From Nitrosospira briensis C-128 (GTDB lineage Bacteria; Pseudomonadota; Gammaproteobacteria; Burkholderiales; Nitrosomonadaceae), in the NCBI RefSeq assembly GCF_000619905.2, contig NZ_CP012371.1, positions 2,046,001-2,110,000 of the forward strand: 64,000 bases of DNA, in the 5' to 3' direction. The notes under the pieces were generated by a model. The model did no database searches. It was not told the origin of the DNA and saw only the letters and a program-made list of their open reading frames with translations. The position numbers were made by a program, and so were the translations under genes. Positions 1-19,643 of the stretch are shown piece by piece (positions within the stretch are counted from its first letter, which is position 1; each line of letters begins with the position of its first letter).

Positions 1-2
1 GC

Positions 3-242
3 TCAGCGGATCTCGAGTTCGGCCATAAACGCTATTTCACGCTGGAGTCTTTGCTTGCGATGGTGCAGAGCGAGGGGTTGGAGGTGCGCAAGGTTGAAGG
101 CCTCTTGCTCAAACCGATCACGACACAGCAGATGCTCGATTTGAATCTCAGCGAAGCGATTTTGCAGGCCATGCTCAAAGTAGGCGTCAGTTATCCCGAA
201 TTGTGCAATTCGTTATTAATGCGGGCGAGCTGGCCCAGGTAG
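3..242 (+). CDS. SAM-dependent methyltransferase, C-terminal part (5' end outside window)
   Basis: The frame is open from the first bases of the window to a TAG at 240-242, so only the last 79 codons are present. The phrase FGHKRYFTLESL followed by an amphipathic helix is typical of the region after the Rossmann core in class I methyltransferases of the Methyltransf_11/23 type, where a 'His-x-Arg-x-Phe-(T/S)' element precedes the last strand. The SAM-binding motifs would lie upstream and cannot be checked. It runs in the same direction as the sugar-modification cluster that follows, about 100 bases before the next gene, and may belong to it. The fold assignment is fair; the substrate is unknown. 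Confidence 0.65.
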   Translation, partial: SADLEFGHKRYFTLESLLAMVQSEGLEVRKVEGLLLKPITTQQMLDLNLSEAILQAMLKVGVSYPELCNSLLMRASWPR

Positions 243-341
243 ACGGAATATCCAGCAAATCTCCGCCCACCACAATTTACCAATTTCTTGAGTGCTCATA
301 TAGAACCCTCCAAGCAGCTTCGTAACCGAAACGATATCTCA

Positions 342-755
342 ATGCAAGCGTTTCTTCTTCGCTTCCACCATTTTGGTCTGGCCAGCAGACGACCGGAGCA
401 GACCCTTCGATTCCTCCGGGGATTGGGCCATGAGGTAGCCGCGCAGGTCTACGACCCGCTACAAAATGTGAATCTCTGGCTGTGTACCCACTTCTCCATG
501 CCGACCGTCGAGTTGGTCGGTCCGGCCGAGGGGTCGGGGCCGCTGGATGCAATCCTCGCTGCATCGAATGAAAGCATCTATCATCTTTGTTACGAAACGG
601 AAAATCTCGCTGTCAGTCTTGAATCCATGAAGGTAGCCGGATTCCGTGTGATCTGCATATCGGCTCCCAAGCCCGCGATCCTTTTCAATAACAGGCAGGT
701 CAGCTTCTACATGGTCAAGGATTTTGGCATAATCGAGTTATTGGAGCCCGCCTGA
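342..755 (+). CDS. VOC (glyoxalase/methylmalonyl-CoA epimerase-like) protein
   Basis: The 137-residue product begins FHHFGLA and alternates beta-alpha-beta modules with conserved acidic residues (for example VELVGP and IELLEP near the ends of the two modules), the hallmark of the vicinal-oxygen-chelate fold. The nearest families are methylmalonyl-CoA epimerase-like and Glyoxalase_4 proteins, which use a metal held by His and Glu. An upstream TTG at 288 would add 18 residues, but those do not look like family sequence, so the ATG at 342 is preferred. VOC genes are often found next to FkbH and ACP genes in glycan or polyketide-like clusters; here fkbH starts 18 bases later. A role in handling the ACP-bound acyl unit is an inference; the reaction is unknown. 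Confidence 0.72.
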   Translation: MQAFLLRFHHFGLASRRPEQTLRFLRGLGHEVAAQVYDPLQNVNLWLCTHFSMPTVELVGPAEGSGPLDAILAASNESIYHLCYETENLAVSLESMKVAGFRVICISAPKPAILFNNRQVSFYMVKDFGIIELLEPA

Positions 756-773
756 TGATATCGACAGACTAGA

Positions 774-2552
774 GTGGTTGCAGTGGCTTCCTCATTCCCC
801 ACGGATCCCCCCCCGGCGTTATCCGATCTGATCAGTACCGGCGATACGATGTATGCCGCACTGTCGTCAACGGTTCCCGAGTATCGCTTCGGCTTCTTGC
901 GTAACATAACGCTGGAAGGCATCGAGCCTTACCTGCGCTACCACATGCTGGCGATCGGGATGCGGCCGACTCTGGTTTTCGGTGGTTATGGATCGCTGCG
1001 TCAGGACCTCGTATCGCCGGACTCGCCTCTGGTTAAATGTAGTCCGAACATTCTGGTAACAGCATTCATGCTTGAGGAGTTGGATTCCAGCTACGGACTG
1101 CCCGGTTGGGACGCTTCCCGTTCACAAGAAGAGTTGAGTGCGATTTTTGCGGCCTTGATGGCGACCGACGTGCCCACTATCGCCCTCAATACGTTCATCG
1201 TTCCTTTTTATTCCGAGACAGGCGCTTTAATCGCTGCGCTGGATGTTGCCAACCAGGTAGCCAGGCTGAATGATTTTGTGCGCAACTTTGTCCGTGAGCA
1301 CAGCCCACGCTTCTGTTTAATGGATTGGGATCGGCTTGCACATCGAATAGGCGAAGCCGAGGCGATGGACTATCGGTACTGGTATATTTCCAAGGCGCCG
1401 TTCAAACGGCCCTTTCTTGATGCGCTGGCGCGTGAGTTGGTAAAGGTTGTGCTTACCCTCAACGGACGCGGCAAGAAGTGCCTGGTCCTGGATTGCGATA
1501 ACACGCTCTGGGGAGGTGTAATCGGGGAGGATGGCATCGAAGGTATCCAGTTGGATGGTCATGATTACCCAGGCCGCGTGTACTATGATTTCCAGAAGAA
1601 CGTTCTGCAATTGGCCGAGCGCGGAGTGCTGATTGCGCTCTGTTCCAAGAACAACGAACAGGATGTGCTTGAGGTACTGGATAACCATCCGTGGAGTCTG
1701 CTCAAGCGCACCCATCTATCCGCTTTCCGAATCAACTGGAACGACAAGGCCGCTAACCTGGCGGGTCTGGCAAAGGAATTGAATCTTGGCCTCGATGCAT
1801 TCGTATTCGTGGACGACAATCCTCGGGAGCTGGAATTATTGAGGCAGGTATTACCTCAAGTCACCACCCTGCAGGTACCGGATCGGCTCTATGAATACCC
1901 GGCATTGCTGTTACGCGACGGCTTGTTCGATACGCTGATCATCAGCCAGGAGGATAGGATACGCGCCAGCCTTTATCAGACCGAGACGCAGCGGAGAACC
2001 GAGCGCAACCAGCATGCAAATCTGGAGGACTATCTTTCATCGCTGGGGCAGGTGGCGGCCATTCACACCGCCACCGATGGGGAAGCCAGACGGGTTGCGC
2101 AATTGACCCAGAAAACGAACCAGTTTAACTTGACGACCCGGCGCTATTCCGACCACGAGATCGCGAACTTTCGTGCCTCCCCGGACGCTCGCGTCTATAC
2201 CTTATCCGCCCGTGATCGCTTTGGCTCTCTTGGGTTGACAGGTGTTTTTATCGCCCAACGGCGGCAAGATACTGCGGTGGTCGATTCTCTTCTGATGAGT
2301 TGTAGAGCACTCGGCCGCCAGCTCGAGTTCGCATTCGTCCTGGAGTGCATGCGGCACATTGTGGCAGACTGGCAAGTTCAAGCGTGGGAGGCGGAATACC
2401 TGCCCTCAGCCAAGAATAACCAGGTAGCCGATTTCTGGGGCGGGTTAGGTTTCATGCTGCTGGAAGAAGTGAAAGGAGATCGGCGCTACAGGTTGCCGGC
2501 TTCCATGCCTGAGATGGCGTCCCCTTTTTTTATCCATGTCGAAAGAGAGTAA
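774..2552 (+). CDS. FkbH-like HAD-IIIC family protein
   Basis: The 592-residue protein carries the HAD motif I as LVLDCDNTLWGG near residue 237, with both Asp residues present, followed by VIGEDG, the signature of the FkbH/HAD-IIIC family. A later VFVDDNP supplies the acidic HAD motif, and the C-terminal 150 residues are GNAT-like, as in full-length FkbH proteins. Family members dephosphorylate 1,3-bisphosphoglycerate and load the glyceryl group onto the phosphopantetheine of an ACP. An ACP gene begins 7 bases downstream, matching that role. The start is a GTG with a weak ribosome site; an ATG at 849 is the alternative. Family is clear; that glyceryl is the acyl group here is inferred from the family. 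Confidence 0.9.
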   Translation: MVAVASSFPTDPPPALSDLISTGDTMYAALSSTVPEYRFGFLRNITLEGIEPYLRYHMLAIGMRPTLVFGGYGSLRQDLVSPDSPLVKCSPNILVTAFMLEELDSSYGLPGWDASRSQEELSAIFAALMATDVPTIALNTFIVPFYSETGALIAALDVANQVARLNDFVRNFVREHSPRFCLMDWDRLAHRIGEAEAMDYRYWYISKAPFKRPFLDALARELVKVVLTLNGRGKKCLVLDCDNTLWGGVIGEDGIEGIQLDGHDYPGRVYYDFQKNVLQLAERGVLIALCSKNNEQDVLEVLDNHPWSLLKRTHLSAFRINWNDKAANLAGLAKELNLGLDAFVFVDDNPRELELLRQVLPQVTTLQVPDRLYEYPALLLRDGLFDTLIISQEDRIRASLYQTETQRRTERNQHANLEDYLSSLGQVAAIHTATDGEARRVAQLTQKTNQFNLTTRRYSDHEIANFRASPDARVYTLSARDRFGSLGLTGVFIAQRRQDTAVVDSLLMSCRALGRQLEFAFVLECMRHIVADWQVQAWEAEYLPSAKNNQVADFWGGLGFMLLEEVKGDRRYRLPASMPEMASPFFIHVERE

Positions 2553-2559
2553 CACCCTT

Positions 2560-2796
2560 ATGTCTGATATAGAGCGCCGTACCCGTGTTGTCATGGGCAA
2601 AGTACTGCAAATGCCACCGCAAGATATTTCCGTGGATGCTTCCCGCGAGACGCTTGCGGCCTGGGATTCGCTCAAGCACATGAATTTGATCCTGGCGCTG
2701 GAGGATGAATTCAGCGTCGAGTTCAATGACCAGGAAATAGCGGGTATAAACAGCCTGAACCTCTTATTGGAGGCGCTACGGATTAAATGCCCATGA
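2560..2796 (+). CDS. Acyl carrier protein
   Basis: A 78-residue acidic four-helix protein with the phosphopantetheine site AAWDSLKHM, the modified residue being Ser37. It has the usual hydrophobic helix II and a C-terminal NLLLEAL helix. An in-frame ATG at 2536 would overlap fkbH by 17 bases and add eight non-family residues, so 2560 is chosen. It sits between fkbH and a NeuD-type acyltransferase, and its last codons overlap the next start. It is a dedicated ACP rather than the fatty-acid AcpP, whose motif is GADSLD. It probably carries the acyl group activated by the upstream FkbH protein; that cargo is not visible in the sequence. Confidence 0.9.
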   Translation: MSDIERRTRVVMGKVLQMPPQDISVDASRETLAAWDSLKHMNLILALEDEFSVEFNDQEIAGINSLNLLLEALRIKCP

Positions 2797-3476
2797 ATGA
2801 TGAGCGGCGTGATAGGCCTTTGATCATCTTCGGTGTAGGCGAACTGGCCCAACTGGCCTATTTTTACTTTACCCATGATAGCCTCCGGCAGGTGGTCGCC
2901 TTCACCGTGGATGGCGCCCACCTTCAGCAGGATCAATGCATGGGGTTACCCGTACTGCCTTTTGAGGAGGTGCACGTACACTATGCGCCCCAGGAATATG
3001 ACATGTTTGTGGCGATAGGCTATGCTCGCCTCAATCAGGCTCGAGCGGAAAAGTGTTTAGAAGCCAAAGCGCGAGGCTACCGCCTGGCAACCTATATCAG
3101 CAGCAGGAGCGTGACATGGACCGACCTGATCATTGGCGAAAACTGTTTCATCATGGAAGGGAACATAATCCAGCCTTTCGTGCGGATAGGTAATAATGTC
3201 ATCATCTGGTGCGGTAGCCTGGTGAGTCATCACGTCGAAATCGACGACAATTGTTTCATTGGTGCGCATGCAGTCGTCTCGGGTCACGTGAAGATTGGCG
3301 CTCACAGTTTCGTCGGTGTAAATGCCACGCTTCGTGACAAGATCACCTTGGCAGAGCAGACCCTGGTTGGGGCGGGTGCGCTGATTATCGCCAGCACCAA
3401 GGAGAATACCGCTCATCTCGCCGCAGCCAGTCCGGAAGCGGGTGTCCCCAGCCAACGATTGCAATCACTACTCTAG
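2787..3476 (+). CDS. NeuD/PglD-type sugar O- or N-acyltransferase
   Basis: The 229-residue protein has an N-terminal Rossmann-like part (LIIFGVGELAQLAYFYF) and a C-terminal left-handed beta-helix of hexapeptide repeats from about residue 110, with I-G-x-x-x-x-I repeats such as IGENCFI, IGNNVII and IGAHSFV. This is the architecture of NeuD, PglD and PerB enzymes, which acylate amino groups or hydroxyls of (nucleotide) sugars; His residues in SHHVEI and GAHAVV sit where the catalytic base is expected. The start overlaps the ACP stop (alternative ATG at 2793), with GGAGG at 2769-2773, so translation is probably coupled. The donor could be acetyl-CoA or the neighbouring acyl-ACP; the latter is inference. 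Confidence 0.86.
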   Translation: MPMNDERRDRPLIIFGVGELAQLAYFYFTHDSLRQVVAFTVDGAHLQQDQCMGLPVLPFEEVHVHYAPQEYDMFVAIGYARLNQARAEKCLEAKARGYRLATYISSRSVTWTDLIIGENCFIMEGNIIQPFVRIGNNVIIWCGSLVSHHVEIDDNCFIGAHAVVSGHVKIGAHSFVGVNATLRDKITLAEQTLVGAGALIIASTKENTAHLAAASPEAGVPSQRLQSLL

Positions 3477-3488
3477 CCGAATCATTTT

Positions 3489-4202
3489 ATGCAAGCGAGC
3501 TGCAAAAAGGTTGCCATACTCCAATCGAACTATATCCCCTGGAAGGGTTATTTCGATCTCATCCATGACGTTGATCTTTTCATCTTTTATGACGATGTCC
3601 AATATACGCATTCCGACTGGCGCCACCGGAACAAATTGATGACCCGAGACGGGCCGCGGTGGCTTACCATTCCAGCAGGTCACGACTTGAAGCGCCTGAT
3701 ATGCGAGGTGGAAATCCCGGATCAAAGCTGGAAGCAGCAACACAGAAGCATCATTGAACAGAATTACAGAAATGCGCCTTTCATCGAGGAATCGCAACCG
3801 CTGCTGGATTTCCTGTATGCCAATACAATAACAAGTCTCTCTGATTACAATCAGCGTGCCATAAGGCATCTCTCCAATATTTTGGGAATACATACACAGT
3901 TTGCCGACAGTCGGCTTCTCGGCGTCAATGGCCGCAAAACCGAGCGGTTAATCGGTATCCTGGAGAGCGTAGGCGCGACAAAATATATCAGCGGTCCTTC
4001 AGCCAGGGACTATATCGATGAGCCCATGTTTGTGGAGGCCGGCATTGAGCTGGCGTATAAGGAATATCCGGGATATCCCCCTTATCGGCAATGTTTTTCG
4101 CCATTCTCGCCCTTCGTCACCATACTCGACCTGCTGATGAATGCGGGACCGGAAGCGCCTCGTTACATCTGGGGATGGCATCAGAACGAATATCAAGCAT
4201 GA
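3489..4202 (+). CDS. WbqC family protein
   Basis: The 237-residue product starts with VAILQSNYIPWKGYFDLI and continues with DVQYTHSDWRHRNK, both diagnostic of the WbqC-like family, at the usual family length. WbqC proteins occur in O-antigen and capsule clusters and are commonly paired with amino-sugar aminotransferases; they have been proposed to take part in amide bond formation on amino sugars, but I know of no firmly settled mechanism. It lies 12 bases after the NeuD-type gene and 7 before a small carrier, inside one apparent operon. The family assignment is sure, the reaction is not. Confidence 0.9.
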   Translation: MQASCKKVAILQSNYIPWKGYFDLIHDVDLFIFYDDVQYTHSDWRHRNKLMTRDGPRWLTIPAGHDLKRLICEVEIPDQSWKQQHRSIIEQNYRNAPFIEESQPLLDFLYANTITSLSDYNQRAIRHLSNILGIHTQFADSRLLGVNGRKTERLIGILESVGATKYISGPSARDYIDEPMFVEAGIELAYKEYPGYPPYRQCFSPFSPFVTILDLLMNAGPEAPRYIWGWHQNEYQA

Positions 4203-4209
4203 GGAAAAG

Positions 4210-4593
4210 ATGAACGGACGATTCGATATGGCGGGACATATCTACATCCTGCTGACCCTGCTGTTCACGGTATATGGCCAGTTGGTGCTCAGGTGGCAGA
4301 TGGCGCAAACGCGTGGCATGCCCGAAGGCGGGTTGGATAAGCTTTTATTTCTTCTCCAGCAGTTCTTCAACCCCTGGATCATATCAGGCTTGCTTTCTGC
4401 TTTTCTTGCCTCGCTTGCCTGGATGGCGGCCATGACCCGTTTCGAGCTCAATTACGCTTATCCTTTCATGAGCCTGGCCTTTATCATCGTCATGATTTTC
4501 TCCGTGATTTTCCTGAATGAGACACTCACCATACAAAGTATTATAGGTACGATAATGGTGGTCGGCGGCTTGATTATTATTGCCCGCGCATAA
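4210..4593 (+). CDS. Small 4-TM DMT/SMR-like carrier (ArnE-like)
   Basis: The 127-residue protein has four hydrophobic segments (about residues 8-27, 50-72, 77-98 and 104-125) and ends VGGLIIIARA, like small multidrug-resistance and ArnE/ArnF-type half-transporters of the EamA superfamily. The ATG at 4210 follows GAGGAAAAG directly, so it is chosen over an in-frame ATG at 4141 inside wbqC. ArnE/ArnF (about 110-130 residues) flip undecaprenyl-phosphate-aminoarabinose. The next two genes here, an aminotransferase and a GT39 enzyme, are the counterparts of ArnB and ArnT. A role as flippase subunit for a lipid-linked sugar is therefore likely but inferred from context; other SMR functions are possible. 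Confidence 0.8.
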   Translation: MNGRFDMAGHIYILLTLLFTVYGQLVLRWQMAQTRGMPEGGLDKLLFLLQQFFNPWIISGLLSAFLASLAWMAAMTRFELNYAYPFMSLAFIIVMIFSVIFLNETLTIQSIIGTIMVVGGLIIIARA

Positions 4594-4643
4594 CACTCGC
4601 AACCTTATTTTTCGTGAATAATACAACTCAAACAAGCGCGGCT

Positions 4644-5765
4644 ATGATCCCATTCAACAAGCCTTACATGACCGGAAAAGAGCTGTGGTACGTAAGCCAG
4701 GCTCATGCCAGTGGACACCTCGCGGGTGACGGAATCTTTACCAAAAAGTGCAACGCATGGCTGGAACGTCGCATCGGGTGCGAGAAGGCATTGCTGACGC
4801 ATTCCTGCACGGCTGCGCTGGAGATGGCGGCGATTCTTGCTGACATTCATCCCGGCGATGAGATCATCATGCCCTCCTACACTTTTGTCTCGACCGCCAA
4901 TGCGTTTGCATTGAGGGGAGGCGTGCCGGTATTCGTTGATATTCGGCCTGACACCTTCAACATCGATGAGGCTTTGATAGAGACGGCAATTACGCCGAAA
5001 ACAAGGGCTATCGTGGCAGTTCATTATGCAGGCGTCGCTTGTGAGATGGATACCATCATGTCGATAGCGGAAAGATACGGCTTGCTGGTAATCGAGGACG
5101 CCGCGCAGGGCATCATGTCCACCTATAAAGGGCGACCGCTGGGGAGTATCGGACATCTCGCCGCTTTGAGTTTCCACGAGACCAAGAATATCATTTCCGG
5201 AGAAGGGGGCGCTTTGTTGATAAATGCGCCAAATTTCGCCGAAAAAGCTGAAATAATCAGGGAAAAAGGCACAAACCGCAGCCTTTTTTTTCGCGGCCAA
5301 GTCGATAAATACACCTGGGTTGATTTCGGTTCATCCTATCTTCCGAGTGAACTGATCGCTGCTTTTCTATGGGCCCAAATGGAAGAGGCCGATTCCATTA
5401 CGAATCGTCGGCTGGATATCTGGAACACCTACCATGATAACTTCGACATGCTTGAAATGCAGGGCAAAATACGCCGTCCCGTTATCCCGTCCGATTGCAT
5501 GCATAACGCGCACATGTACTATCTTTTGTTGCCGAATCTCGACAAGCGCAGCACCTTTATCGCCGGACTCAAACAGAAGGGAATAGGGACCGTCTTTCAC
5601 TACGTGCCGCTTGACAGTTCCCCCATGGGAGAAAAGCACGGCCGCAAATCCGGATCGCTAGCCCAGACGCAATTGCTGAGCGAACGGTTGGTACGGTTGC
5701 CGTTATGGCTGGGGTTGGAAGAGTTCCAAAGCGAAGTCATCCTGAAGGTCATTGCAGAGTTATGA
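4644..5765 (+). CDS. wecE: dTDP-4-amino-4,6-dideoxygalactose transaminase (WecE/RffA-type)
   Basis: A 373-residue fold-type I PLP aminotransferase of the DegT/DnrJ/EryC1 family. It begins MIPFNKPYMTGKELWYV, matching WecE, and has the PLP Asp in IEDAAQG and the Schiff-base lysine in HETKN at position 181. WecE converts dTDP-4-keto-6-deoxyglucose to dTDP-4-amino-4,6-dideoxygalactose with glutamate as donor. A GTG at 4614 would add ten residues that do not fit the family. No dTDP-sugar synthesis genes (rfbA/rfbB) are in the window, so the keto-sugar must come from elsewhere. It ends 4 bases before the next start. The exact nucleotide sugar is inferred from family similarity. Confidence 0.85.
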   Translation: MIPFNKPYMTGKELWYVSQAHASGHLAGDGIFTKKCNAWLERRIGCEKALLTHSCTAALEMAAILADIHPGDEIIMPSYTFVSTANAFALRGGVPVFVDIRPDTFNIDEALIETAITPKTRAIVAVHYAGVACEMDTIMSIAERYGLLVIEDAAQGIMSTYKGRPLGSIGHLAALSFHETKNIISGEGGALLINAPNFAEKAEIIREKGTNRSLFFRGQVDKYTWVDFGSSYLPSELIAAFLWAQMEEADSITNRRLDIWNTYHDNFDMLEMQGKIRRPVIPSDCMHNAHMYYLLLPNLDKRSTFIAGLKQKGIGTVFHYVPLDSSPMGEKHGRKSGSLAQTQLLSERLVRLPLWLGLEEFQSEVILKVIAEL

Positions 5766-5769
5766 AGGG

Positions 5770-7479
5770 ATGACTACGCCAGACGTCCGGCATTCGGTGC
5801 AAACTGATCAGGCTGATTCAAAGCTCGAATCGGACGTACGTGTCAATTCCCGCGATGCGCTGGCTCTGCTGGCCCTGTGGTGCGGCGTCTGCCTGCTCTT
5901 CTGGAAGTCCCTGCATCCCGGCGAATTCTGGTGGACCGATGAATCGCGCCATGCCATGAATGGCGTCTTCTTTTTTGATCTCTGGCAGGACATGCCCTGG
6001 AAGGCACCCTACGAGTACGCTCTTCAGTATTTTGCTCAATATCCTGCCCTGGCATTAAACTGGTATCCGCCATTTTTCCCCGTCGTTGAATCTGTTTTTC
6101 TTGCTGTGTTCGGGATTACCGAATTCAGTGCGCATCTCACGGTAATGGTGTTCGCCCTGGCTGGCGTATCGGCGTGGTATGCGTGGACGAGCCCAATCTG
6201 GGGAAGAGCGGCCGCCGTGCTTTCCTGTCTGCTCTACCTTTCGGCACCCGGCGTGCTTGATTGGACACGTTCCGTCATGCTGGAAGTCCCAGCAGTGGCG
6301 ATGATCATCATGTCGATTCTCGCATTCGAACGTTATCTGGCTCTTCCAGGTTGGCGCCGCGCTGCGCTTGCCGGGCTTGCGCTGGCCTCCATGTTGCTGC
6401 TCAAGCAGACTACCGTATTCATCCTGCCCGCTTTGCTGGCCTATGCATTGCTGGCCGGACATGGACAGTTGCTATGGCGCAAGGAAGTTGCGCTGGCATA
6501 CATCATCGTCGGCACTGCCATCGCATTGCTCACAATGCATGCGCTCAAGTTCGGTGCAGTACCGGTCAATTCCCTGGTGGATCAATTCGGTCCAAATAGC
6601 TCGCAACTATTCAACGGAAGGCGCTGGGGATATTTCTGGTCCGCACTGTGGGGTGTTTGCGGATGGCCACTTGGTATCGCCATCCTGATAGGCGTAGCGT
6701 TTCGGGCAGGCATGGGTACCAGAGGCAAACCGCAGGATTCGCTGATAATCTTTTGGCTTACAGCCTCATATCTGTTTACGACATTAGTCGTCGGAAGCGG
6801 CGAAGGGAATGTTCCGCGCTACACGATGTATGCCTTGCCCCCGTTGGCATTGCTGGCCTGCATGCCGTTAAGCCGGGAGGTCGTGCTGAACACCGCTATC
6901 CGCCGAACAGCGTTCGTGTTTCTGTCCGTGCTTGCCGGTTGGAATGTATATGCGGGCTCGACCAAGCCGCACCCTTACATCGCCGGATACGAACAGGCGG
7001 CTGAATTTGTCGCCGGGCAGGACGATACCGGCCTGATTCTGTTTGCCGGGAAACATGACGGCAATTTCATCTTTCACCTGCGTGCCGTCGATCCCGGCAA
7101 GAACAAGGCGGTATTGCGGGCCGACAAGATCCTGGTATCCATGGCGGTGCACAAGTCATTCGGCATGGTCTCCTATGTCCAGAACGTGGAAGATGTCATC
7201 GGGTTAATCGATCGTTACGGAGTAGGCACCATCGTGATCGAGAGCCGCGACGTAGTGGATTTGCCTGAATTCAAACTCCTGGCTAAAGCAATGGATGATC
7301 ACCGGTTCCGGATGATCAAGGAAATCCCGGTACTAACTAATGTGGCGGAGTTTGATAACCTGTCCATCCGGGTTTACCGCTATCTGGATAAAAAGGAACA
7401 GGCAGGTGATCTCGTTATTCCACTGCCGCACATGGGCATGGAAATCAAGCTGAAACCCCAACAGAACAAATCTCGATGA
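5770..7479 (+). CDS. GT39/PMT-type integral membrane glycosyltransferase (ArnT-like)
   Basis: The 569-residue protein has a cytoplasmic N terminus, then a first membrane helix followed by a periplasmic loop with WWTDESRHAMNG, where Asp57-Glu58 match the catalytic acidic pair of GT39/ArnT enzymes. About ten to twelve membrane helices follow and a soluble periplasmic domain ends the protein. Such enzymes use polyprenyl-phosphate sugars as donors on the periplasmic face. The ATG at 5770 follows GAAGGG and is preferred over TTG at 5752, which would overlap wecE. Position right after the carrier and aminotransferase suggests it transfers the modified amino sugar. The acceptor (lipid A, polysaccharide or protein) is unknown. 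Confidence 0.85.
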   Translation: MTTPDVRHSVQTDQADSKLESDVRVNSRDALALLALWCGVCLLFWKSLHPGEFWWTDESRHAMNGVFFFDLWQDMPWKAPYEYALQYFAQYPALALNWYPPFFPVVESVFLAVFGITEFSAHLTVMVFALAGVSAWYAWTSPIWGRAAAVLSCLLYLSAPGVLDWTRSVMLEVPAVAMIIMSILAFERYLALPGWRRAALAGLALASMLLLKQTTVFILPALLAYALLAGHGQLLWRKEVALAYIIVGTAIALLTMHALKFGAVPVNSLVDQFGPNSSQLFNGRRWGYFWSALWGVCGWPLGIAILIGVAFRAGMGTRGKPQDSLIIFWLTASYLFTTLVVGSGEGNVPRYTMYALPPLALLACMPLSREVVLNTAIRRTAFVFLSVLAGWNVYAGSTKPHPYIAGYEQAAEFVAGQDDTGLILFAGKHDGNFIFHLRAVDPGKNKAVLRADKILVSMAVHKSFGMVSYVQNVEDVIGLIDRYGVGTIVIESRDVVDLPEFKLLAKAMDDHRFRMIKEIPVLTNVAEFDNLSIRVYRYLDKKEQAGDLVIPLPHMGMEIKLKPQQNKSR

Positions 7480-7684
7480 ATAAGCTGTTTTCCCGGATAT
7501 GTCGCCCACGTCGCAAGCTCGAATAACATGGGACCGGGGAAAAGATAAAGCCTGAAAACCAATGGTCATGGACGACATCGGTTGTTAAGCGTGGTATATC
7601 GTCTAGGACCAAGCGTAGAACTTGAACTTTTCACCAATCCGCCGTAATAGCTCTAGAGCATACCCAAATAACCTAAGTAAATTG

Positions 7685-8902
7685 ATGCGTATCCTGCATA
7701 TTCTTGACCATTCCATTCCTCTCCACAGTGGCTATACATTCAGGACGCTCTCCATCCTCAAGGAGCAGCGCGCCCTGGGTTGGGAAACCTTTCACCTGAC
7801 CGGATCAAAACAGGAAAATTGCAGTGTGCTGGAAGAAGATATCGAAGGCTGGCACTTTTATAGAACACCGGCGGCAACAGGTTTGAGGGCGAGACTTCCC
7901 GTCCTGAATCAGGTTTCTGTCATCGAAAGTCTCACCCGCCGCCTGAGCGAGGTGGCCCAGATCGTCAAGCCAGATATCCTGCATGCCCACTCCCCGGTAC
8001 TTAACGCCATCCCCGCCCTGCGCGTGGGCCGCAGGCTGGGCATTCCCGTAGTCTATGAAATCAGGGCGTTCTGGGAAGACGCGGCCGTGGATCACGGCAC
8101 CAGTCGCGAGTGGGGAATACGATATCGCCTTACACGGGGACTGGAGAGTTATGCCTTGAGGCGCGTGGACGCAATAACCACCATTTGCGAAGGACTGCGC
8201 GGCGACATCCTCGGGCGAGGCATTGCGTCGGAAAAGGTAACGGTCATCCCCAATGCCGTGAATATCGAAAATTTCAGCGTGGGCAAAAGTCGGGACCCGC
8301 AGCTTGCCGAAGATCTCGGCGTTGAGGGAAAAACACTGCTGGGCTTCATTGGTTCATTTTATGCTTATGAGGGCTTGACCGTCCTGCTGCGGGCACTACC
8401 GGAAATGCTGTCCGGAAATCCCGACATTCGCGTACTGCTGGTCGGCGGCGGCCCGCAGGAAAAAGAATTAAAAGCCATAACCAAACAGTTGCGCCTCGAA
8501 GACAGGGTGATCTTCACCGGCCGTATTCCTCATGAGCAGGTGCCCCACTATTACAATCTGATCGATATTCTCATCTATCCCCGTCTGCAAATGCGGCTCA
8601 CCGACCTCGTCACGCCACTCAAGCCCCTCGAAGCCATGGCACAAGGCAGACTCGTCGCGGCGTCTGATGTCGGCGGCCATCTGGAATTAATCCAGGACGG
8701 AAAAACCGGCGTTCTTTTCAAGGCTGGCGATCCACATGCCCTGGCGTCCAAGGTGCTGAAGCTTCTTGCCAGTCCCGATCAATGGCCGGGCCTGCGTAAT
8801 GCAGCCCGAAGTTTTGTAGAAACGCAGCGTAATTGGCCTGTCAGCGTTGCCCGTTACCGGGGTGTCTACGCCCCGCTTGTCGCAAAGCAGTCATCCCCGT
8901 GA
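7685..8902 (+). CDS. XrtA/PEP-CTERM system-associated GT4 glycosyltransferase
   Basis: The 405-residue GT-B enzyme starts MRILHILDHSIPLHSGYTFR, the characteristic opening of the exosortase A-associated glycosyltransferases of TIGR04063 (Daro_2409 family). The C-terminal half has the donor-site elements LLGFIGSFYAYEG, GGGP and KPLEAMAQG with the GT4 E-x7-E pattern. An in-frame TTG at 7622 would add 21 atypical residues. A 205-base gap precedes it, so it may start a new transcript; the next gene overlaps its stop by four bases. It probably adds a sugar during assembly of the exopolysaccharide exported by the XrtA-linked genes at the window end. Sugar specificity is unknown. Confidence 0.85.
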   Translation: MRILHILDHSIPLHSGYTFRTLSILKEQRALGWETFHLTGSKQENCSVLEEDIEGWHFYRTPAATGLRARLPVLNQVSVIESLTRRLSEVAQIVKPDILHAHSPVLNAIPALRVGRRLGIPVVYEIRAFWEDAAVDHGTSREWGIRYRLTRGLESYALRRVDAITTICEGLRGDILGRGIASEKVTVIPNAVNIENFSVGKSRDPQLAEDLGVEGKTLLGFIGSFYAYEGLTVLLRALPEMLSGNPDIRVLLVGGGPQEKELKAITKQLRLEDRVIFTGRIPHEQVPHYYNLIDILIYPRLQMRLTDLVTPLKPLEAMAQGRLVAASDVGGHLELIQDGKTGVLFKAGDPHALASKVLKLLASPDQWPGLRNAARSFVETQRNWPVSVARYRGVYAPLVAKQSSP

Positions 8903-9990
8903 AAGCGACCGGCTTGCGGATCGGTTTGATTGGGCCGCTGCCGCCTCCATCGGGGGGAATGGCGAACCAGATGCTGCAATTAGCCCGGTTGCTGCGTGAG
9001 GAAGATGTCACGGTGGAGTTGATTCAGGTCAACCGCCCTTACCATCCGCATTGGATTGGCAGGCTCAAGGGGATAAGAGCGGGTTTTCGGCTGCTCCCTT
9101 ATCTTGCTCACCTCTGGTTTTCGGCAAGCAGGGTTCAGTTATTTCACGTAATGGCTAATTCCGGCTGGTCATGGCACCTTTTTGCCGCCCCGGCCATTTG
9201 GATAGCGAGAATCCGAAACATACCCGTCATTATCAATTACCGCGGCGGTGAGGCCGATGTCTTTTTCAATAAAGCTTTTTTTTGGGTAAAGCCAAGCCTG
9301 TGCCGGGCCGATGCAATCATCGTTCCTTCCGGTTTTCTTCAAGCGGTATTTGGAAAGCGGGGTTTCCCCACCAGCATCGTGCCCAACATTATTGACCTCA
9401 GCCGCTTTGGGACGGCAGCGTGTCCTGCACCTCCGCCGAAGGCGGATTTTCCGCATATCATCGTTACCCGTAACCTGGAGCCGATCTACGACAATGCCAC
9501 TGCCTTGCGCGCCTTCGCTATCATAAAGCAAGCATTTCCGGCGGCAAAACTTACCTTGGCCGGGTCCGGGCCAGAGCGGCAGATGCTGGAAGAACTTGCA
9601 TGCAGGTTGGGCTTGGCGGATGTGGTCACCTTCACGGGTCGCGTGGATAATGAGGGCATGGCCGCTCTATATCAGAGCGCCGATATCATGATCAATCCCA
9701 GCCTGGTCGATAACATGCCCATCTCATTGCTGGAAGCATTGGCGAGTAGCGTTCCCGTAGTGAGCACAGATGTCGGCGGAGTGCCCTTTATGGTGGAGCA
9801 TGAAAAGACGGCTTTGCTTGTCCCCCCGCAAAACCCGGAGGCCATGGCAAACGCGGTTCTTGCACTGCTGAACGACCCTGCCAAGGCAATGCAGCTCTGC
9901 AAGGCCGGCGTCGAGGCCGTGCAGCGCTACACTTGGCCGAATGTTCGGGATCGTCTGCTCCACGTTTACAAGCAGGCCCTGCAAAAATGA
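8899..9990 (+). CDS. Family 4 glycosyltransferase
   Basis: The 363-residue product begins LRIGLIGPLPPPSGGMANQM, a glycine-rich GT-B opening, and ends with the GT4 donor site (TFTGRVDNEGMAALYQSADI, then SLLEALASSVPVV and DVGGVPFMVE). The GTG start overlaps the previous TGA as GTGA, so translation is coupled. The frame stays open upstream into the previous gene, but those codons are not family-like. It belongs to the same glycan assembly unit as its neighbour; the linkage it makes cannot be told from sequence. Confidence 0.9.
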   Translation: MKATGLRIGLIGPLPPPSGGMANQMLQLARLLREEDVTVELIQVNRPYHPHWIGRLKGIRAGFRLLPYLAHLWFSASRVQLFHVMANSGWSWHLFAAPAIWIARIRNIPVIINYRGGEADVFFNKAFFWVKPSLCRADAIIVPSGFLQAVFGKRGFPTSIVPNIIDLSRFGTAACPAPPPKADFPHIIVTRNLEPIYDNATALRAFAIIKQAFPAAKLTLAGSGPERQMLEELACRLGLADVVTFTGRVDNEGMAALYQSADIMINPSLVDNMPISLLEALASSVPVVSTDVGGVPFMVEHEKTALLVPPQNPEAMANAVLALLNDPAKAMQLCKAGVEAVQRYTWPNVRDRLLHVYKQALQK

Positions 9991-10118
9991 CGAGACGTAG
10001 CCTGTTCATGCTTTTCAGCCCTGCCAAGGCGCTATTCCGCAAATCCATCCACGTCTTGCTTCAAGACTGCGATAAACTGATTCATCTGGTGCACCGTAGT
10101 GAGTTCATAAGAAAATGA
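9987..10118 (+). CDS. Small basic ORF (43 aa), coupled to the GT4 gene
   Basis: An ATG at 9987 overlaps the TGA of the preceding glycosyltransferase as ATGA, and the frame runs 43 codons to 10118. The peptide is basic and amphipathic (MTRRSLFMLF at its start, LIHLVHRSEF near its end). The arrangement fits a coupled small gene, but it could equally be the 5' remnant of a truncated gene. I recognise no family. The 129 bases between it and the acyltransferase gene show nothing else. Confidence 0.33.
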   Translation: MTRRSLFMLFSPAKALFRKSIHVLLQDCDKLIHLVHRSEFIRK

Positions 10119-10247
10119 AACCCATGGGGCACAAAGAATCCTGTTCGGTTACAGCGGCTGGTTGTCAAATGGTCGAATAAACGACCCTCAGCTGCTGGAT
10201 TCAGTTTAGCGTTATCACGTGAACCAAAGGCACGAGGTGAAGCTGCC

Positions 10248-12234: not shown

Positions 12235-13587
12235 ATGAGCTTATATACATCACTGATCTCCAGCCTTGTTTTCCCCCTTCACGAGCGCATCAAAAATCAC
12301 AGCAGCGTTGCGGTTCGCAAAGAGATGGAGCTATCGCAATGGTGGGATACAAAACGTCTGGAAGCGCTCCAGCTTCTCAAACTGCAGCGGCTTCTTGCCC
12401 ACGTCGAGACAAGCGTCCCCTATTACCGCGACATGTTCGCAAGCGTTGGGTTCAAGGCGGCAGACGTGCACAGCCTCGCAGACCTGTCACGCCTGCCTCT
12501 TCTGGATAAACCCAAAATTCGCGCCCACACCGAAGCGCTGAAGTCCGCAAATGGCCGAGACCTCTCCCGCTTTAACACCGGCGGCTCCAGCGGCGAACCG
12601 CTGATTTTTTATATCAGCAAAGAGCGTGTTGGGCATGATGTCGCCGCCAAGTGGCGCGCTACACGCTGGTGGAACGTGGATATCGGCGACCCCGAGGTTG
12701 TCATCTGGGGTTCACCCATTGAACTTGGCGCCCAGGACGGCCTTCGCGCACTTCGCGACAAGCTGCTCAGGACCCGCCTGCTCCCCGCCTTCGAAATGTC
12801 TGCGCAAAAGCTCGATCGGTTCCTGCATGAAATCCGAGCCATTCGCCCTAAAATGCTTTTCGGCTATCCCTCCGCGCTATCGCATATCGCCCGCCATGCA
12901 GAGGCCCGCGGGTGCCGGATGGACGACTTGGGCATCAACGTCGCATTCGTTACTTCAGAACGCCTTTACGACGAGCAGCGCCAGCAGATCAGCAGAATAT
13001 TCGGATGCCCGGTGGCCAATGGCTATGGGGGGCGCGACGCTGGTTTTATCGCCCATGAATGCCCGGAGGGCGGCATGCATATTACCGCAGAGGATATCAT
13101 CGTCGAGATTGTGGATCAGCAGGGTACGCCGCTGCCCTGTGGAGAGGCCGGAGAAATTATCGTCACCCATCTGGCCACCGGGGATTTTCCCTTCATCCGC
13201 TACCGTACCGGCGATATCGGCGTACTGGGCAGCAAGCCTTGCATTTGTGGAAGAGGTCTTCCTCTGCTCAAGGAAATCCAGGGCCGCAGTACCGATTTTC
13301 TTGTTGCGCAAAATGGCACGGTTATCCACGGCCTGGCGCTCATTTATATCCTGCGTGACCTGCCCCAGATACGCAACTTCAAGATCATCCAGGAAAATCT
13401 GAATCTGACGCGTGTATGGGTGGTTTCGGATGAAAGGCTGGAAGTCGGGCTGACCAGTAAAATCAAGGAAGGGTTCAAGGCCAGGCTAGGCCAGGGAGTG
13501 GAAATCGTTGTCGAAGAAGTGAATGAAATTCCGCTGGAAAAATCGGGCAAGTTTCGTTACGTGGTGAGTAAAGTTGTTTCAGGCTAA
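12235..13587 (+). CDS. CapK/phenylacetate-CoA ligase-like adenylate-forming enzyme
   Basis: The 450-residue protein has the AMP-binding core FNTGGSSGEPLIFYIS, then GYGGRDAGFIAHECPEG and FIRYRTGDIG, which match the phenylacetate-CoA ligase/CapK branch of the ANL superfamily. A CxCGRGLP element with a probable metal-binding Cys follows, and the short C-terminal domain ends ...IPLEKSGKFRYV with the conserved Lys. CapK-like proteins are frequent in capsule loci, but their substrate is generally not known. It is 73 bases after the OafA-type gene and ends the first plus-strand block. It may activate an acyl or amino-acid group that is attached to the glycan; this is inference. Confidence 0.85.
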   Translation: MSLYTSLISSLVFPLHERIKNHSSVAVRKEMELSQWWDTKRLEALQLLKLQRLLAHVETSVPYYRDMFASVGFKAADVHSLADLSRLPLLDKPKIRAHTEALKSANGRDLSRFNTGGSSGEPLIFYISKERVGHDVAAKWRATRWWNVDIGDPEVVIWGSPIELGAQDGLRALRDKLLRTRLLPAFEMSAQKLDRFLHEIRAIRPKMLFGYPSALSHIARHAEARGCRMDDLGINVAFVTSERLYDEQRQQISRIFGCPVANGYGGRDAGFIAHECPEGGMHITAEDIIVEIVDQQGTPLPCGEAGEIIVTHLATGDFPFIRYRTGDIGVLGSKPCICGRGLPLLKEIQGRSTDFLVAQNGTVIHGLALIYILRDLPQIRNFKIIQENLNLTRVWVVSDERLEVGLTSKIKEGFKARLGQGVEIVVEEVNEIPLEKSGKFRYVVSKVVSG

Positions 13588-17522: not shown

Positions 17523-18296
17523 ATGAAGATCGCTAACAAATTCAAACATATCGCGTATTCCACCGCGAGGCTCCTCGGTTATGAAGTAGTGCCCAGTTGG
17601 CGGTTCGAAACGCTGGGCTTTACGACACTATTAACCGACTTGTTCCAACGCAACAAGATTAACTACGTATTGGATGTTGGGGCCAATACAGGACAATACG
17701 TTCGATTTTTGCGGCAGTTTGCGGGATATGAAGGACGCGTAATTTCTTTCGAACCCGTTTCTCATTGCTACCAATCCCTTATAAAAAAAGCTGAGTTGGA
17801 CCCGCTGTGGGATACACGTCAATTTGCTTTAGGGAAGGAAAACTCAACGCAGAAAATAAACGTGATGAAATCAGATCAGTTTTCATCATTTCTCCAACCA
17901 ACCCATAAGTTCATTGACGGACTGCAAGACCTCAACGTGATAGATCATACGGAGGAAATAATCGTAAAATCATTGGATGAAGTGTTGTCCGAGATGAAAA
18001 TAGATGGCGTTAAGGAGGCGATTTATTTAAAGCTCGACACGCAAGGCTATGATATGCAAGTCATTGCAGGCGCAAAAAATTCTCTGCAAAATATTTGCGC
18101 GCTCCAAACTGAGGTTTCGGTACTCAATATTTATGAGGGAATGCCATCTATAGAGCAGGTCATCGTAGAAATGCGCAACCTGGAATTCGATCTCGTCGGC
18201 ATGTTCCCCGTTAACCATGATCGAAATTTAAGAGTAATCGAATATGACGCAGTGTTCATTAACCGTAGGCGAATGAATGGTCCAGTCAGTCCATAA
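17523..18296 (+). CDS. FkbM family methyltransferase
   Basis: The 257-residue product has SAM motif I as YVLDVGANTGQYVRFL, followed by VISFEPVSHCYQSL, and the family-specific IYLKLDTQGYDMQVIAGA toward the C terminus. FkbM enzymes O-methylate sugars and other hydroxyls. Starts at TTG 17466 or ATG 17523 are both possible; neither has a strong ribosome site, and the ATG is chosen because the protein then begins at family-like sequence. The gene is AT-rich compared with the genes upstream, as expected of an exchanged glycan-modifying gene. The sugar it acts on is unknown. Confidence 0.85.
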   Translation: MKIANKFKHIAYSTARLLGYEVVPSWRFETLGFTTLLTDLFQRNKINYVLDVGANTGQYVRFLRQFAGYEGRVISFEPVSHCYQSLIKKAELDPLWDTRQFALGKENSTQKINVMKSDQFSSFLQPTHKFIDGLQDLNVIDHTEEIIVKSLDEVLSEMKIDGVKEAIYLKLDTQGYDMQVIAGAKNSLQNICALQTEVSVLNIYEGMPSIEQVIVEMRNLEFDLVGMFPVNHDRNLRVIEYDAVFINRRRMNGPVSP

Positions 18297-18398
18297 CCTC
18301 TATGGCTAGGATTATCGATTCCTTTGCAAATTTAGGGCGCGGTTGAGCAGCAGTTCTTTCCCCCGTGTTCTCGCTTACCAAGCCCAACAGGCTTATAC

Positions 18399-19643
18399 CT
18401 ACTTTACCGCTTGGTGCATCAAGCCGGCTAGCTTTGCCACTATTCTGCTTCGATCATACCTGCACTCAGCGACCGACCGTACCGTAAGCCCAAGTATCCG
18501 TGCCATTTCGTAATCTTTAAGTAGATCAGTACAGGCATTGGCAAAATCCTCGGCGGAATCTCGCAAAATAATTTCCTTTCCATCAATTAAATCGATTCCT
18601 TCAGCACCTATGCATGTTGACACAACTGGACGCCCGTAAGCTGCAGCTTCCATGATCTTCACCCTGGTTCCGCCTCCTGTCAGAATCGGACATATTACGA
18701 TACGGGCTCGTCGATAGAGTTCGTCCAGGTCTTCTACAAATCCAGGAAACGTTACCTGCGGCGGCGGATGCGCAAAATGCCGTATTGCCTCAACCCGATG
18801 TCCGGCAAAGATAGCTTCGGCGCTAGGGCAACCAGCAGATATTATGGGCCATACCTTGTCTAGAAAGAACTCTGCACCTAGTCGGTTGGGTGAATATTCA
18901 TAGTTTCCCAACATGACGATTCTAGGCTCCTGCGAGGGGCTCGTGGCTACTGGCAGCGTCACCGCATTGGGAATCGTCATGATATTTCCGACGGGACAAA
19001 GTCGCATGAGTTTATCCCGGTCAAGATCAGAGCAAACAAGAGTTGCGAACGATAATTTAATTGCGTTACGTTCCCCCCATAAAAGCGCAGGCAACTGTAA
19101 GTAGGCAAGATTCTTGCGCCACCAGTGCGGAGGTTGCGATAAGTGACGTAGCATCGCGACATGCTCGATGTCATCGATATCGAAGAACACCGGTGGCAAA
19201 ATTTGTCTCGTCAGCATTAACGGCGTCATACATTGAAGCCGGTGGATGAAGACGATGTCTGGATTGCGCGCAAGGCAATCATCCACAGCAGCAATCTGAG
19301 CCGTGCCTGAAAATTCGCTGTAACCCGGTAGTCGAAAGAAACTACTGGCTGATTTGAGATATCGGTCAAAGCGCTCGGTATTTCTCGGCGGTTCGCGCCG
19401 ACAAAATGATGCGCGAACGTCCACCTCCCAACGTTCGGACAAATCGCGCTCGACTGCTCGAACTTGGTTTTCCGCGATATTGTCATCTTGGTGGCGCAAA
19501 AAAAACAGAGCTTCGATCGTCGAGCAATTTTGTTTGATCGCATCGATCATTATCGTTAATCGTCGATATAACCCGCTTTGGGTAGCGCCCGGCCTCGTCG
19601 GCTGCCATGCGGAGACGAGTAGCGCCTTGCTAATCGCGGTCAC
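18399..19643 (-). CDS. Family 4 glycosyltransferase
   Basis: The 414-residue GT-B protein carries FDIDDIEHVAMLRHL in the N-terminal half, and in the C-terminal half IVMLGNYEYSPNR, VTFPGFVEDLDELY and GGGTRVKIMEAAAYGRPVVS, the donor-binding signature of GT4 enzymes with long TxxKxxEA motifs. The GTG start overlaps the stop of the flippase gene by four bases, so the two are coupled in one minus-strand unit. It probably builds the repeat unit that this flippase exports. Specificity is unknown. Confidence 0.88.
   Translation of the reverse strand: MTAISKALLVSAWQPTRPGATQSGLYRRLTIMIDAIKQNCSTIEALFFLRHQDDNIAENQVRAVERDLSERWEVDVRASFCRREPPRNTERFDRYLKSASSFFRLPGYSEFSGTAQIAAVDDCLARNPDIVFIHRLQCMTPLMLTRQILPPVFFDIDDIEHVAMLRHLSQPPHWWRKNLAYLQLPALLWGERNAIKLSFATLVCSDLDRDKLMRLCPVGNIMTIPNAVTLPVATSPSQEPRIVMLGNYEYSPNRLGAEFFLDKVWPIISAGCPSAEAIFAGHRVEAIRHFAHPPPQVTFPGFVEDLDELYRRARIVICPILTGGGTRVKIMEAAAYGRPVVSTCIGAEGIDLIDGKEIILRDSAEDFANACTDLLKDYEMARILGLTVRSVAECRYDRSRIVAKLAGLMHQAVK

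What the first reader, a model, noticed from the sequence alone, without database searches (positions are those of the whole stretch)
342..7479. Candidate system for making, acylating, flipping and transferring a 4-amino sugar (FkbH + ACP + NeuD + WbqC + ArnE/ArnB/ArnT-like)
Eight tightly packed genes combine two logics that I do not know to be described together. One is an FkbH-ACP pair, whose family makes glyceryl-ACP from 1,3-bisphosphoglycerate, next to a NeuD-type acyltransferase and WbqC. The other is a set resembling Arn: a sugar 4-aminotransferase, a 127-residue 4-TM carrier of ArnE/F size and a GT39 enzyme with the catalytic Asp-Glu pair. The simplest reading is that a dTDP-4-amino-6-deoxysugar is N-acylated from the ACP, placed on polyprenyl phosphate, flipped and transferred to a surface acceptor. 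Families and order are seen; the pathway is inference. The polyprenyl-phosphate transferase could be the distant GT2-GtrA gene at 51648.
Basis: partly seen in the sequence, partly recalled or inferred. Interest (0 to 1): 0.75.

Follow-up and report, generated by a model that had tools for sequence, protein, structure and literature searches.

The report
Modular amino-sugar decorating gene cluster
A soil ammonia-oxidising bacterium carries a gene set that most likely makes an unusual amino sugar, hangs an amino acid and a small glyceric-acid cap on it and exports it to the cell surface, and comparing it with relatives suggests a job for WbqC, a widespread protein of unknown function.

Summary
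The eight genes and their families are real. The transaminase is WecE, so the sugar is dTDP-Fuc4N; rmlB/rmlA-like genes lie 18-20 kb upstream (by eye).

The set is a mosaic. Of 23 genus genomes, 11 have true WecE and all 11 have WbqC; 5 have the FkbH cassette, 6 the GT39 gene, only this one both. A carrier hit goes with FkbH in 5 of 5, this GT39 in 1 of 5. A fitting GT2 ends 1.35 kb before the window, so the gene at 51648 is not needed.

The wider result concerns WbqC, for which I found no function in print. In E. coli I found it in O121- and O123/O186-type loci; Qui4N of S. dysenteriae D7/O121 carries N-acetyl-glycyl, that of O123 N-(3-hydroxybutyryl)-D-alanyl. Seven other opened vioA-like loci lack it. 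I infer that WbqC adds an amino acid to the 4-amine and neighbouring genes cap it, here FkbH-ACP-NeuD with glyceryl. Nothing was assayed; a BshC-like fold hit did not replicate.

The parts
1..242 (+). 3' end of a 240-aa SAM methyltransferase gene (starts upstream, L079 19420)
   Evidence: read across the window edge; next upstream of VOC in 5 of 5 genus loci with the FkbH cassette; a related cluster near WbqC in 12 of 74 named loci
342..755 (+). VOC / Glyoxalase_4 protein, methylmalonyl-CoA-epimerase-like; possible epimerase of the glyceryl thioester
   Evidence: PF13669; TIGR03081 26.7 bits, below cut-off 114.95; of the four motifs that I take for metal-ligand sites (from recall) three are identical in the 4 other genus copies and the fourth differs only in its last residue
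774..2552 (+). FkbH protein: HAD domain with DCDNTLWGG and LCSKNN motifs plus C-terminal part; candidate glyceryl-ACP synthase
   Evidence: TIGR01686 above cut-off; these two motifs conserved in 5 of 5; one PDB relative, 3slr, uncharacterised
2536..2796 (+). acyl carrier protein, WDSLKH
   Evidence: PF00550; DSL serine in 5 of 5
2787..3476 (+). NeuD/PglB/VioB-family acyltransferase; candidate that moves the acyl group from ACP
   Evidence: TIGR03570 above cut-off; best PDB match perosamine N-acetyltransferase 4ea7, E=1.4e-14; both His of SLVSHHVEI kept in 5 of 5, one other residue changed in two copies
3489..4202 (+). WbqC; proposed to attach an amino acid to the 4-amine of the nucleotide sugar
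   Evidence: PF08889; association with WecE; E. coli O121/O123 correlation; predicted fold (not replicated)
4210..4593 (+). 127-aa EamA/ArnF-like small carrier, four hydrophobic segments; candidate flippase
   Evidence: PF00892; NF002816 ArnF 44.8 bits, below cut-off 99; hydropathy; hit over at least 105 aa in 9 of 11 WecE-positive genus loci, a 33-aa fragment in one, none in one
4614..5765 (+). WecE: dTDP-4-amino-4,6-dideoxygalactose transaminase
   Evidence: TIGR02379 and NF008687 above cut-off; best PDB match 6blg, E=3.7e-146
5752..7479 (+). PMT_2/GT39-type polyprenyl-P-sugar transferase with TDE motif, eight hydrophobic segments
   Evidence: PF13231; at 70% identity or more in 6 of 11 WecE-positive genus genomes, only here together with FkbH

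Best explanation
The cluster makes and exports a Fuc4N residue with a composite N-acyl side chain. Steps: (1) RmlA and RmlB (18-20 kb upstream) supply dTDP-4-keto-6-deoxyglucose and WecE aminates it to dTDP-Fuc4N (family-level knowledge). (2) WbqC forms an amide between the 4-amine and a small amino acid, glycine or D-alanine being the best guesses (inferred). (3) FkbH loads glyceryl from 1,3-bisphosphoglycerate on the ACP, the VOC protein perhaps inverts its alpha carbon, and NeuD passes the glyceryl group from ACP to the amine of the amino acid, as I infer for the GNAT-type enzymes of E. coli O121 and O123; the 240-aa methyltransferase may O-methylate the product (inferred). (4) The GT2 just upstream of the window puts the sugar on undecaprenyl phosphate, the ArnF-like carrier flips it, and a GT39-type enzyme (here the adjacent one) transfers it to a surface glycan (inferred). 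The constant core is WbqC and WecE, mostly with GT2 and carrier; the acylation cassette (methyltransferase, VOC, FkbH, ACP, NeuD) and the GT39 are exchangeable.
For: Families. Core versus cassette in the genus; in the nearest genome G009 about 4 kb (methyltransferase to most of NeuD) is missing with a 41-aa NeuD remnant, both flanks 88% identical. Wide survey: 67 of 80 WbqC loci hold a DegT/WecE hit, 50 of 80 at 55% identity or more. In 368 class genomes besides the window's, WecE (E<=1e-90) is in 7 of 9 with a close WbqC (E<=1e-53) and in 14 of the other 359; taking every WbqC at E<=1e-20, 8 of 20 and 13 of 348 (Fisher p=2e-8 and 2e-6). Slot near WbqC: 74 of the 80 loci could be read; within five genes NeuD/hexapeptide in 24, ATP-grasp in 11, formyltransferase in 4 (one representative of each cluster annotated). 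Structure-linked test: WbqC is in E. coli O121 (vioA-WbqC-GNAT) and in two loci with O123/O186-family wzx/wzy (vioA-WbqC-hypothetical-GNAT-MaoC). PMC10609480 (table passages) gives N-acetyl-glycyl-Qui4N for S. dysenteriae D7 and N-[(S)-3-hydroxybutyryl]-D-alanyl-Qui4N for E. coli O123; PMC3210612 (passage) cites O121 for N-acetylglycyl. WbqC is absent from 7 other opened loci with a vioA-like gene (7 kb each side; tblastn negative), including O7 and two with an O116-family flippase. In O121 I can match the other genes to the published repeat unit, leaving WbqC and GNAT for glycine and acetyl. Aminoacyl-Fuc4N exists (D-aspartyl, Treponema medium); glyceroyl amides exist on 4-amino sugars. WbqC with DegT also lies in a Dickeya flagellar island (PMC9650423, passage).
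Against: No activity was measured and no glycan of this organism is known to me. WbqC of the window shares only 25-28% identity with the E. coli ones, and those lie beside VioA (Qui4N), not WecE. The E. coli correlation rests on two WbqC-positive serogroup types and two negatives, of which O116 is a cited structure and O7 rests on gene annotation and a reference title; the O123/O186 and O116 loci are typed by gene names, and O186 has no structure here. 13 of 80 WbqC loci show no DegT hit, some because the contig ends, and 36 of 74 have none of the four acylation or methylation clusters near WbqC. Three genus genomes have WbqC without true WecE (G002 on a 5.6-kb contig; G011 and G021, weak matches). 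The BshC-like fold hit (no hit at E<=0.001) was not among the 50 rows for a second model, and profile comparison with BshC or PanC is not above controls. NeuD alone could acylate the sugar, as VioB does in P. syringae. This GT39 gene is absent from the other four FkbH-bearing genomes (G003 has only a 31% relative elsewhere). The VOC homologues L287-L290 have no FkbH hit in loci with 1.5-kb flanks, and FkbH is in only 1 of the 80 wide loci.
Confidence: 0.5

Rival explanations
1. NeuD transfers glyceryl from the ACP straight to the 4-amine of dTDP-Fuc4N, as VioB is thought to do with an ACP-bound acyl group in the Pseudomonas syringae viosamine island; WbqC does something else (for example acts on another position, or as a transferase partner).
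For: The P. syringae island has vioA, vioB, acp, a KAS III, a reductase and a 241-aa methyltransferase; the word WbqC does not occur in the main text (PMC3927599, passages). The E. coli locus with O49-family wzx/wzy has vioA-NeuD-MaoC without WbqC in the stretch. NeuD and the FkbH cassette come and go together in the genus.
Against: Leaves WbqC, the most constant partner of WecE, without a role, and does not explain why the E. coli types with aminoacyl-Qui4N are those with wbqC.
Confidence: 0.3
2. The acylated dTDP-Fuc4N is used in the cytoplasm by the GT4-like enzymes next door (7622-9990, by eye) on an undecaprenyl-diphosphate glycan; the carrier, GT2 and GT39 belong to a separate lipid-linked sugar.
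For: E. coli O121 and O123-type loci have ordinary glycosyltransferases with wzx/wzy. Two GT4-like genes follow directly, and GT39 is dispensable.
Against: GT2 and an ArnF-like carrier hit sit with WbqC-WecE in most of the genus (9 of 11 each) and beyond (GT2 cluster in 42 of 74 loci, EmrE cluster in 13 of 74; plasmid loci of Peteryoungia and Azospirillum).
Confidence: 0.3
3. The FkbH cassette makes a different acyl-ACP, for example an O-methylated, epimerised or dehydrated C3 unit, and the cap is not plain glyceryl.
For: A methyltransferase and a VOC (epimerase-like) gene are part of the cassette in 5 of 5 genomes. FkbH proteins are known from methoxymalonyl-ACP pathways (recalled; PMC3679948 seen in the search listing only).
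Against: I noted no dehydrogenase gene of a methoxymalonate set by eye in the L079-window gene lists; this was not searched by family. Methyltransferase homologues also occur near WbqC without FkbH, which suits sugar methylation.
Confidence: 0.3

Closest known systems
Pseudomonas syringae viosamine island (flagellin glycan)
   Same: ACP-bound acyl group, VioB acyltransferase, transaminase on a dTDP-4-keto-6-deoxy sugar, 241-aa methyltransferase (PMC3927599, passages)
   Different: KAS III and reductase instead of VOC and FkbH; VioA/Qui4N instead of WecE/Fuc4N; WbqC not in the main text; no carrier or GT39 in its list of seven genes
E. coli O121 and O123 O-antigen loci
   Same: transaminase-WbqC plus acyltransferase next to rmlBA; product is an amino acid on Qui4N capped by acetyl or 3-hydroxybutyryl
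   Different: Qui4N, GNAT caps, Wzx/Wzy assembly; no FkbH, ACP, carrier or GT39 among the annotated genes shown
Arn (4-amino-4-deoxyarabinose) lipid A pathway
   Same: general logic of 4-aminotransferase, GT2 to Und-P, small EamA carrier, GT39 (recalled)
   Different: dTDP-Fuc4N instead of UDP-Ara4N; carrier and GT2 far below the ArnF/ArnC cut-offs; extra acylation genes; ArnA and ArnD were not searched for
Enterobacterial common antigen WecE/WecD
   Same: WecE makes dTDP-Fuc4N
   Different: N-acetylation by WecD (recalled) would here be replaced by WbqC plus cassette; WecD was not searched for
BshC (bacillithiol synthase)
   Same: top fold match of the first WbqC model (4wbd, prob 1.00, TMq 0.42, E=1.8e-3); BshC joins an amino acid to an amino sugar (recalled)
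   Different: no sequence similarity found; not in the rows of a second WbqC model

Membership tests
WecE (dTDP-Fuc4N transaminase) | score above curated cut-off of TIGR02379 / NF008687 | tested here: met
   613 vs 434.85 and 620 vs 375 bits
FkbH glyceryl-ACP synthase | FkbH domain above cut-off, HAD motif and LCSKN Cys | tested here: met
   267.6 vs 146.65 bits; motifs in 5 of 5 (role of the Cys recalled)
FkbH glyceryl-ACP synthase | loads glyceryl from 1,3-bisphosphoglycerate on a partner ACP | not testable with these tools
   needs biochemistry
NeuD/PglB/VioB acyltransferases | TIGR03570 above cut-off and His in the hexapeptide core | tested here: met
   189.2 vs 160.8 bits; His aligned with the VDHD stretch of 4ea7
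WbqC (PF08889) | Pfam gathering score | tested here: met
   239.9 vs 21.3 bits
ArnE/ArnF flippase subunits | NCBIfam equivalog cut-off | tested here: not met
   ArnF 44.8 vs 99, ArnE 22.3 vs 92 bits: works-like claim only
ArnC undecaprenyl-phosphate transferase (upstream GT2) | NF007986 cut-off | tested here: not met
   116.7 vs 529 bits: same general type, other substrate
GT39 / ArnT-like transferases | PMT_2 gathering score and acidic TDE motif | tested here: met
   47.3 vs 26.1 bits; WWTDESRHA (meaning of the motif recalled); no NCBIfam match
methylmalonyl-CoA epimerase | TIGR03081 equivalog cut-off | tested here: not met
   26.7 vs 114.95 bits
BshC | sequence-profile or robust fold similarity | tested here: inconclusive
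   one fold hit; not in the second model's rows; hhalign not above controls

The most novel reading that the evidence does not exclude
WbqC is a distinct class of amide-forming enzyme that aminoacylates nucleotide-linked amino sugars across bacterial phyla, and it works as a fixed platform onto which interchangeable capping cassettes (GNAT, NeuD, formyltransferase, ATP-grasp, and here FkbH-ACP-NeuD) are plugged; in Nitrosospira this yields a Fuc4N-aminoacyl-glyceryl side chain of a kind not found in the passages read here.
Probability: 0.45. Interest if true: 0.75.

Novelty: new variant of a known kind. Interest (0 to 1): 0.6.

Why it matters
WbqC (PF08889) is a widespread polysaccharide-locus family without a function in print that I could find (searches; PMC5532660 calls it functionally uncharacterised, passage). 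The E. coli structure correlation gives it a concrete, testable reaction. If right, amino-acid-bearing surface sugars could be predicted from genomes, and the glyceryl-ACP chemistry of polyketide pathways would be shown feeding surface glycans.

Tried and rejected
ArnB identity of the transaminase: rejected by scores. GT2-GtrA at 51648 as the needed polyprenyl transferase: made unnecessary by the upstream GT2; that gene itself was not examined further. One conserved eight-gene system: rejected, since GT39 and FkbH at high identity occur together only in the window's genome. Homology of WbqC to BshC or PanC by profile: not significant; controls scored as high or higher. WbqC homologues in the PDB by sequence: none credible. 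VOC-FkbH pairing outside the genus: seen once, in an NRPS/PKS-like locus (L172), not seen beside the four VOC homologues L287-L290. FkbH in a class sample of 274 genomes at E<=1e-80: 4 besides the window's, 33-37% identical, none with a WbqC or WecE hit in the fetched stretch.

Full report
WHAT IS THERE. Eight genes at 342-7479, all on the + strand, with gaps of -17 to +20 bases. In order: VOC protein, FkbH, ACP, NeuD/VioB-family acyltransferase, WbqC, 127-aa EamA carrier, WecE transaminase, PMT_2/GT39-type transferase. The carrier is ArnF-like but far below the ArnF cut-off (44.8 vs 99 bits).

WHERE IT IS. The genome is 3.21 Mb in one contig. Genus mates include contigs whose lengths match Nitrosospira briensis Nsp8, Nitrosovibrio tenuis Nv1 and N. 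multiformis Nl12, so the window is from Nitrosospira or close kin. The 20 kb upstream begin with genes that I read by eye as rmlB, rmlD, rmlA and rmlC; near their end lie a weak PMT_2-like gene (L079 16120-17421, 25.2 bits, cut-off 26.1), a GT2 with two C-terminal hydrophobic segments (17594-18547, ending 1.35 kb before the window), a 195-aa hexapeptide transferase, and a 240-aa methyltransferase that ends at window base 242.

CONSERVED OR NOT IN THE GENUS. All 23 genomes held were searched. WecE at 82% identity or more is in 11, and all 11 carry WbqC; three further genomes have a WbqC without true WecE. FkbH at 79% or more is in 5, this GT39 at 70% or more in 6, both only in the window's genome, neither in one (Fisher p=0.08). 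Weaker relatives exist: FkbH-domain paralogues of 31-34% in other genomes, and GT39 relatives of 29-31% in three, one of them (G003) FkbH-positive; the weak PMT_2-like gene is also beside 3 of the 4 other FkbH loci. In the 11 loci a carrier hit of at least 105 aa is in 9 and the GT2 in 9. The order methyltransferase-VOC-FkbH-ACP-NeuD is kept in 5 of 5 FkbH-positive loci. In G009, the nearest relative, the stretch from the methyltransferase to most of NeuD (about 4 kb) is absent and a 41-aa NeuD remnant remains, while both flanks are 88% identical.

WbqC IS THE CONSTANT PARTNER OF WecE. 67 of 80 loci hold a DegT/WecE hit and 50 of 80 one of at least 55% identity; NeuD-type hits are in 30, the carrier in 21, GT39 in 2, FkbH in 1 (N. 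briensis). In a class sample of 368 genomes besides the window's, WecE is in 7 of 9 with a close WbqC and 14 of 359 without; for every WbqC at E<=1e-20 it is 8 of 20 and 13 of 348; this is not corrected for relatedness. Six of the 80 loci could not be read by my gene caller. In the other 74, the genes within five places of WbqC include NeuD/hexapeptide (24 loci), ATP-grasp (11), the methyltransferase (12) and a formyltransferase (4); 36 of 74 have none of these (one representative per cluster annotated). Different acylation genes thus occur in the same neighbourhood.

FOLD. AlphaFold of WbqC (68 rows, pLDDT 92.7) has BshC as its top PDB match (4wbd, prob 1.00, TMq 0.42, E=1.8e-3; no match at E<=0.001). 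BshC attaches cysteine to an amino sugar (recalled), which would suit. However, a second model, of an O121-like WbqC from a virus contig (28 rows, pLDDT 88.4), did not list BshC in its 50 rows, and profile comparisons gave scores no better than unrelated controls. I treat this as a lead only.

MECHANISM PROPOSED. dTDP-Fuc4N from WecE; an amino acid added by WbqC; glyceryl made on the ACP by FkbH, perhaps epimerised by VOC, and moved by NeuD onto the amino acid; possible O-methylation; Und-P transfer by the upstream GT2; flipping by the carrier; transfer by GT39. Step 1 is family-level knowledge; everything else is inference, best supported for WbqC. Composite or related side chains exist: hydroxyacyl-aminoacyl-Qui4N (O123), D-aspartyl-Fuc4N (Treponema medium), D-glyceroyl amides on 4-amino sugars.

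NOVELTY. ACP-based acylation with VioB is known from the P. syringae viosamine island (PMC3927599, passages), and Arn-like export is known (recalled). New here are the FkbH/VOC version, its combination with WbqC and Fuc4N, and a function for WbqC. Searches of the held library for WbqC, for FkbH with WbqC or O-antigen, and for the sugars found no paper assigning WbqC a function; 12 papers hold the word WbqC and I read passages of two; most subscription journals are not held.

Noticed in passing
L041 (G009) 9863-10162, against window 1-3346 and L079 19281-20000: Loss of about 4 kb (methyltransferase, VOC, FkbH, ACP, most of NeuD) with a 41-aa NeuD remnant left: the cassette is excisable.
   Followed up: yes
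L047 17035-17958: A second copy of the Und-P-type GT2 in three separate pieces beside a whole one.
   Followed up: no
L242-L285: WbqC relatives on 44 virus-collection contigs; 14 of 44 also hold a DegT-type hit, three of them WecE at 59-62% identity.
   Followed up: partly
L131 8340-9989; L142; L100; L162: Alternative gene set beside WbqC: ATP-grasp protein, fused to a HAD domain in L131 or paired with a separate phosphoesterase-like gene (by eye) in the others, often with a methyltransferase.
   Followed up: partly
L292 8894-9811, L293 8979-9923, L294 8005-8934, L151, L162: A family of about 300 aa near WbqC in five loci, all five similar to each other; of the three scanned, one matches Glyco_hydro_32N (PF00251) and two have no Pfam match.
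   Followed up: partly
L172 9143-11532: VOC-FkbH pair between very long NRPS/PKS-like frames (by eye) in another genome of the class.
   Followed up: no
L295 1-6675: Mariluticola plasmid: WbqC after pseB, pseC, pseF, PIG-L deacetylase, pseG, a synthase and a formyltransferase-like gene (24.8 bits, just below the Pfam cut-off), so WbqC may also serve nonulosonic amino sugars.
   Followed up: no
NZ_CP193495.1 1893763-1894479: Genome labelled E. coli O103 carries the O121-type wbqC gene: label and locus disagree.
   Followed up: no
L298 8806-9780: The O123/O186-type locus has a gene annotated hypothetical between WbqC and GNAT that looks like a diverged PLP aminotransferase by eye; possibly tied to the D-alanyl group.
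   Followed up: no
window 7622-9990 and 12235-13587: Two GT4-like genes and a PaaK/CapK-like protein (by eye) follow the cluster; similar genes follow it in many genus loci printed.
   Followed up: no
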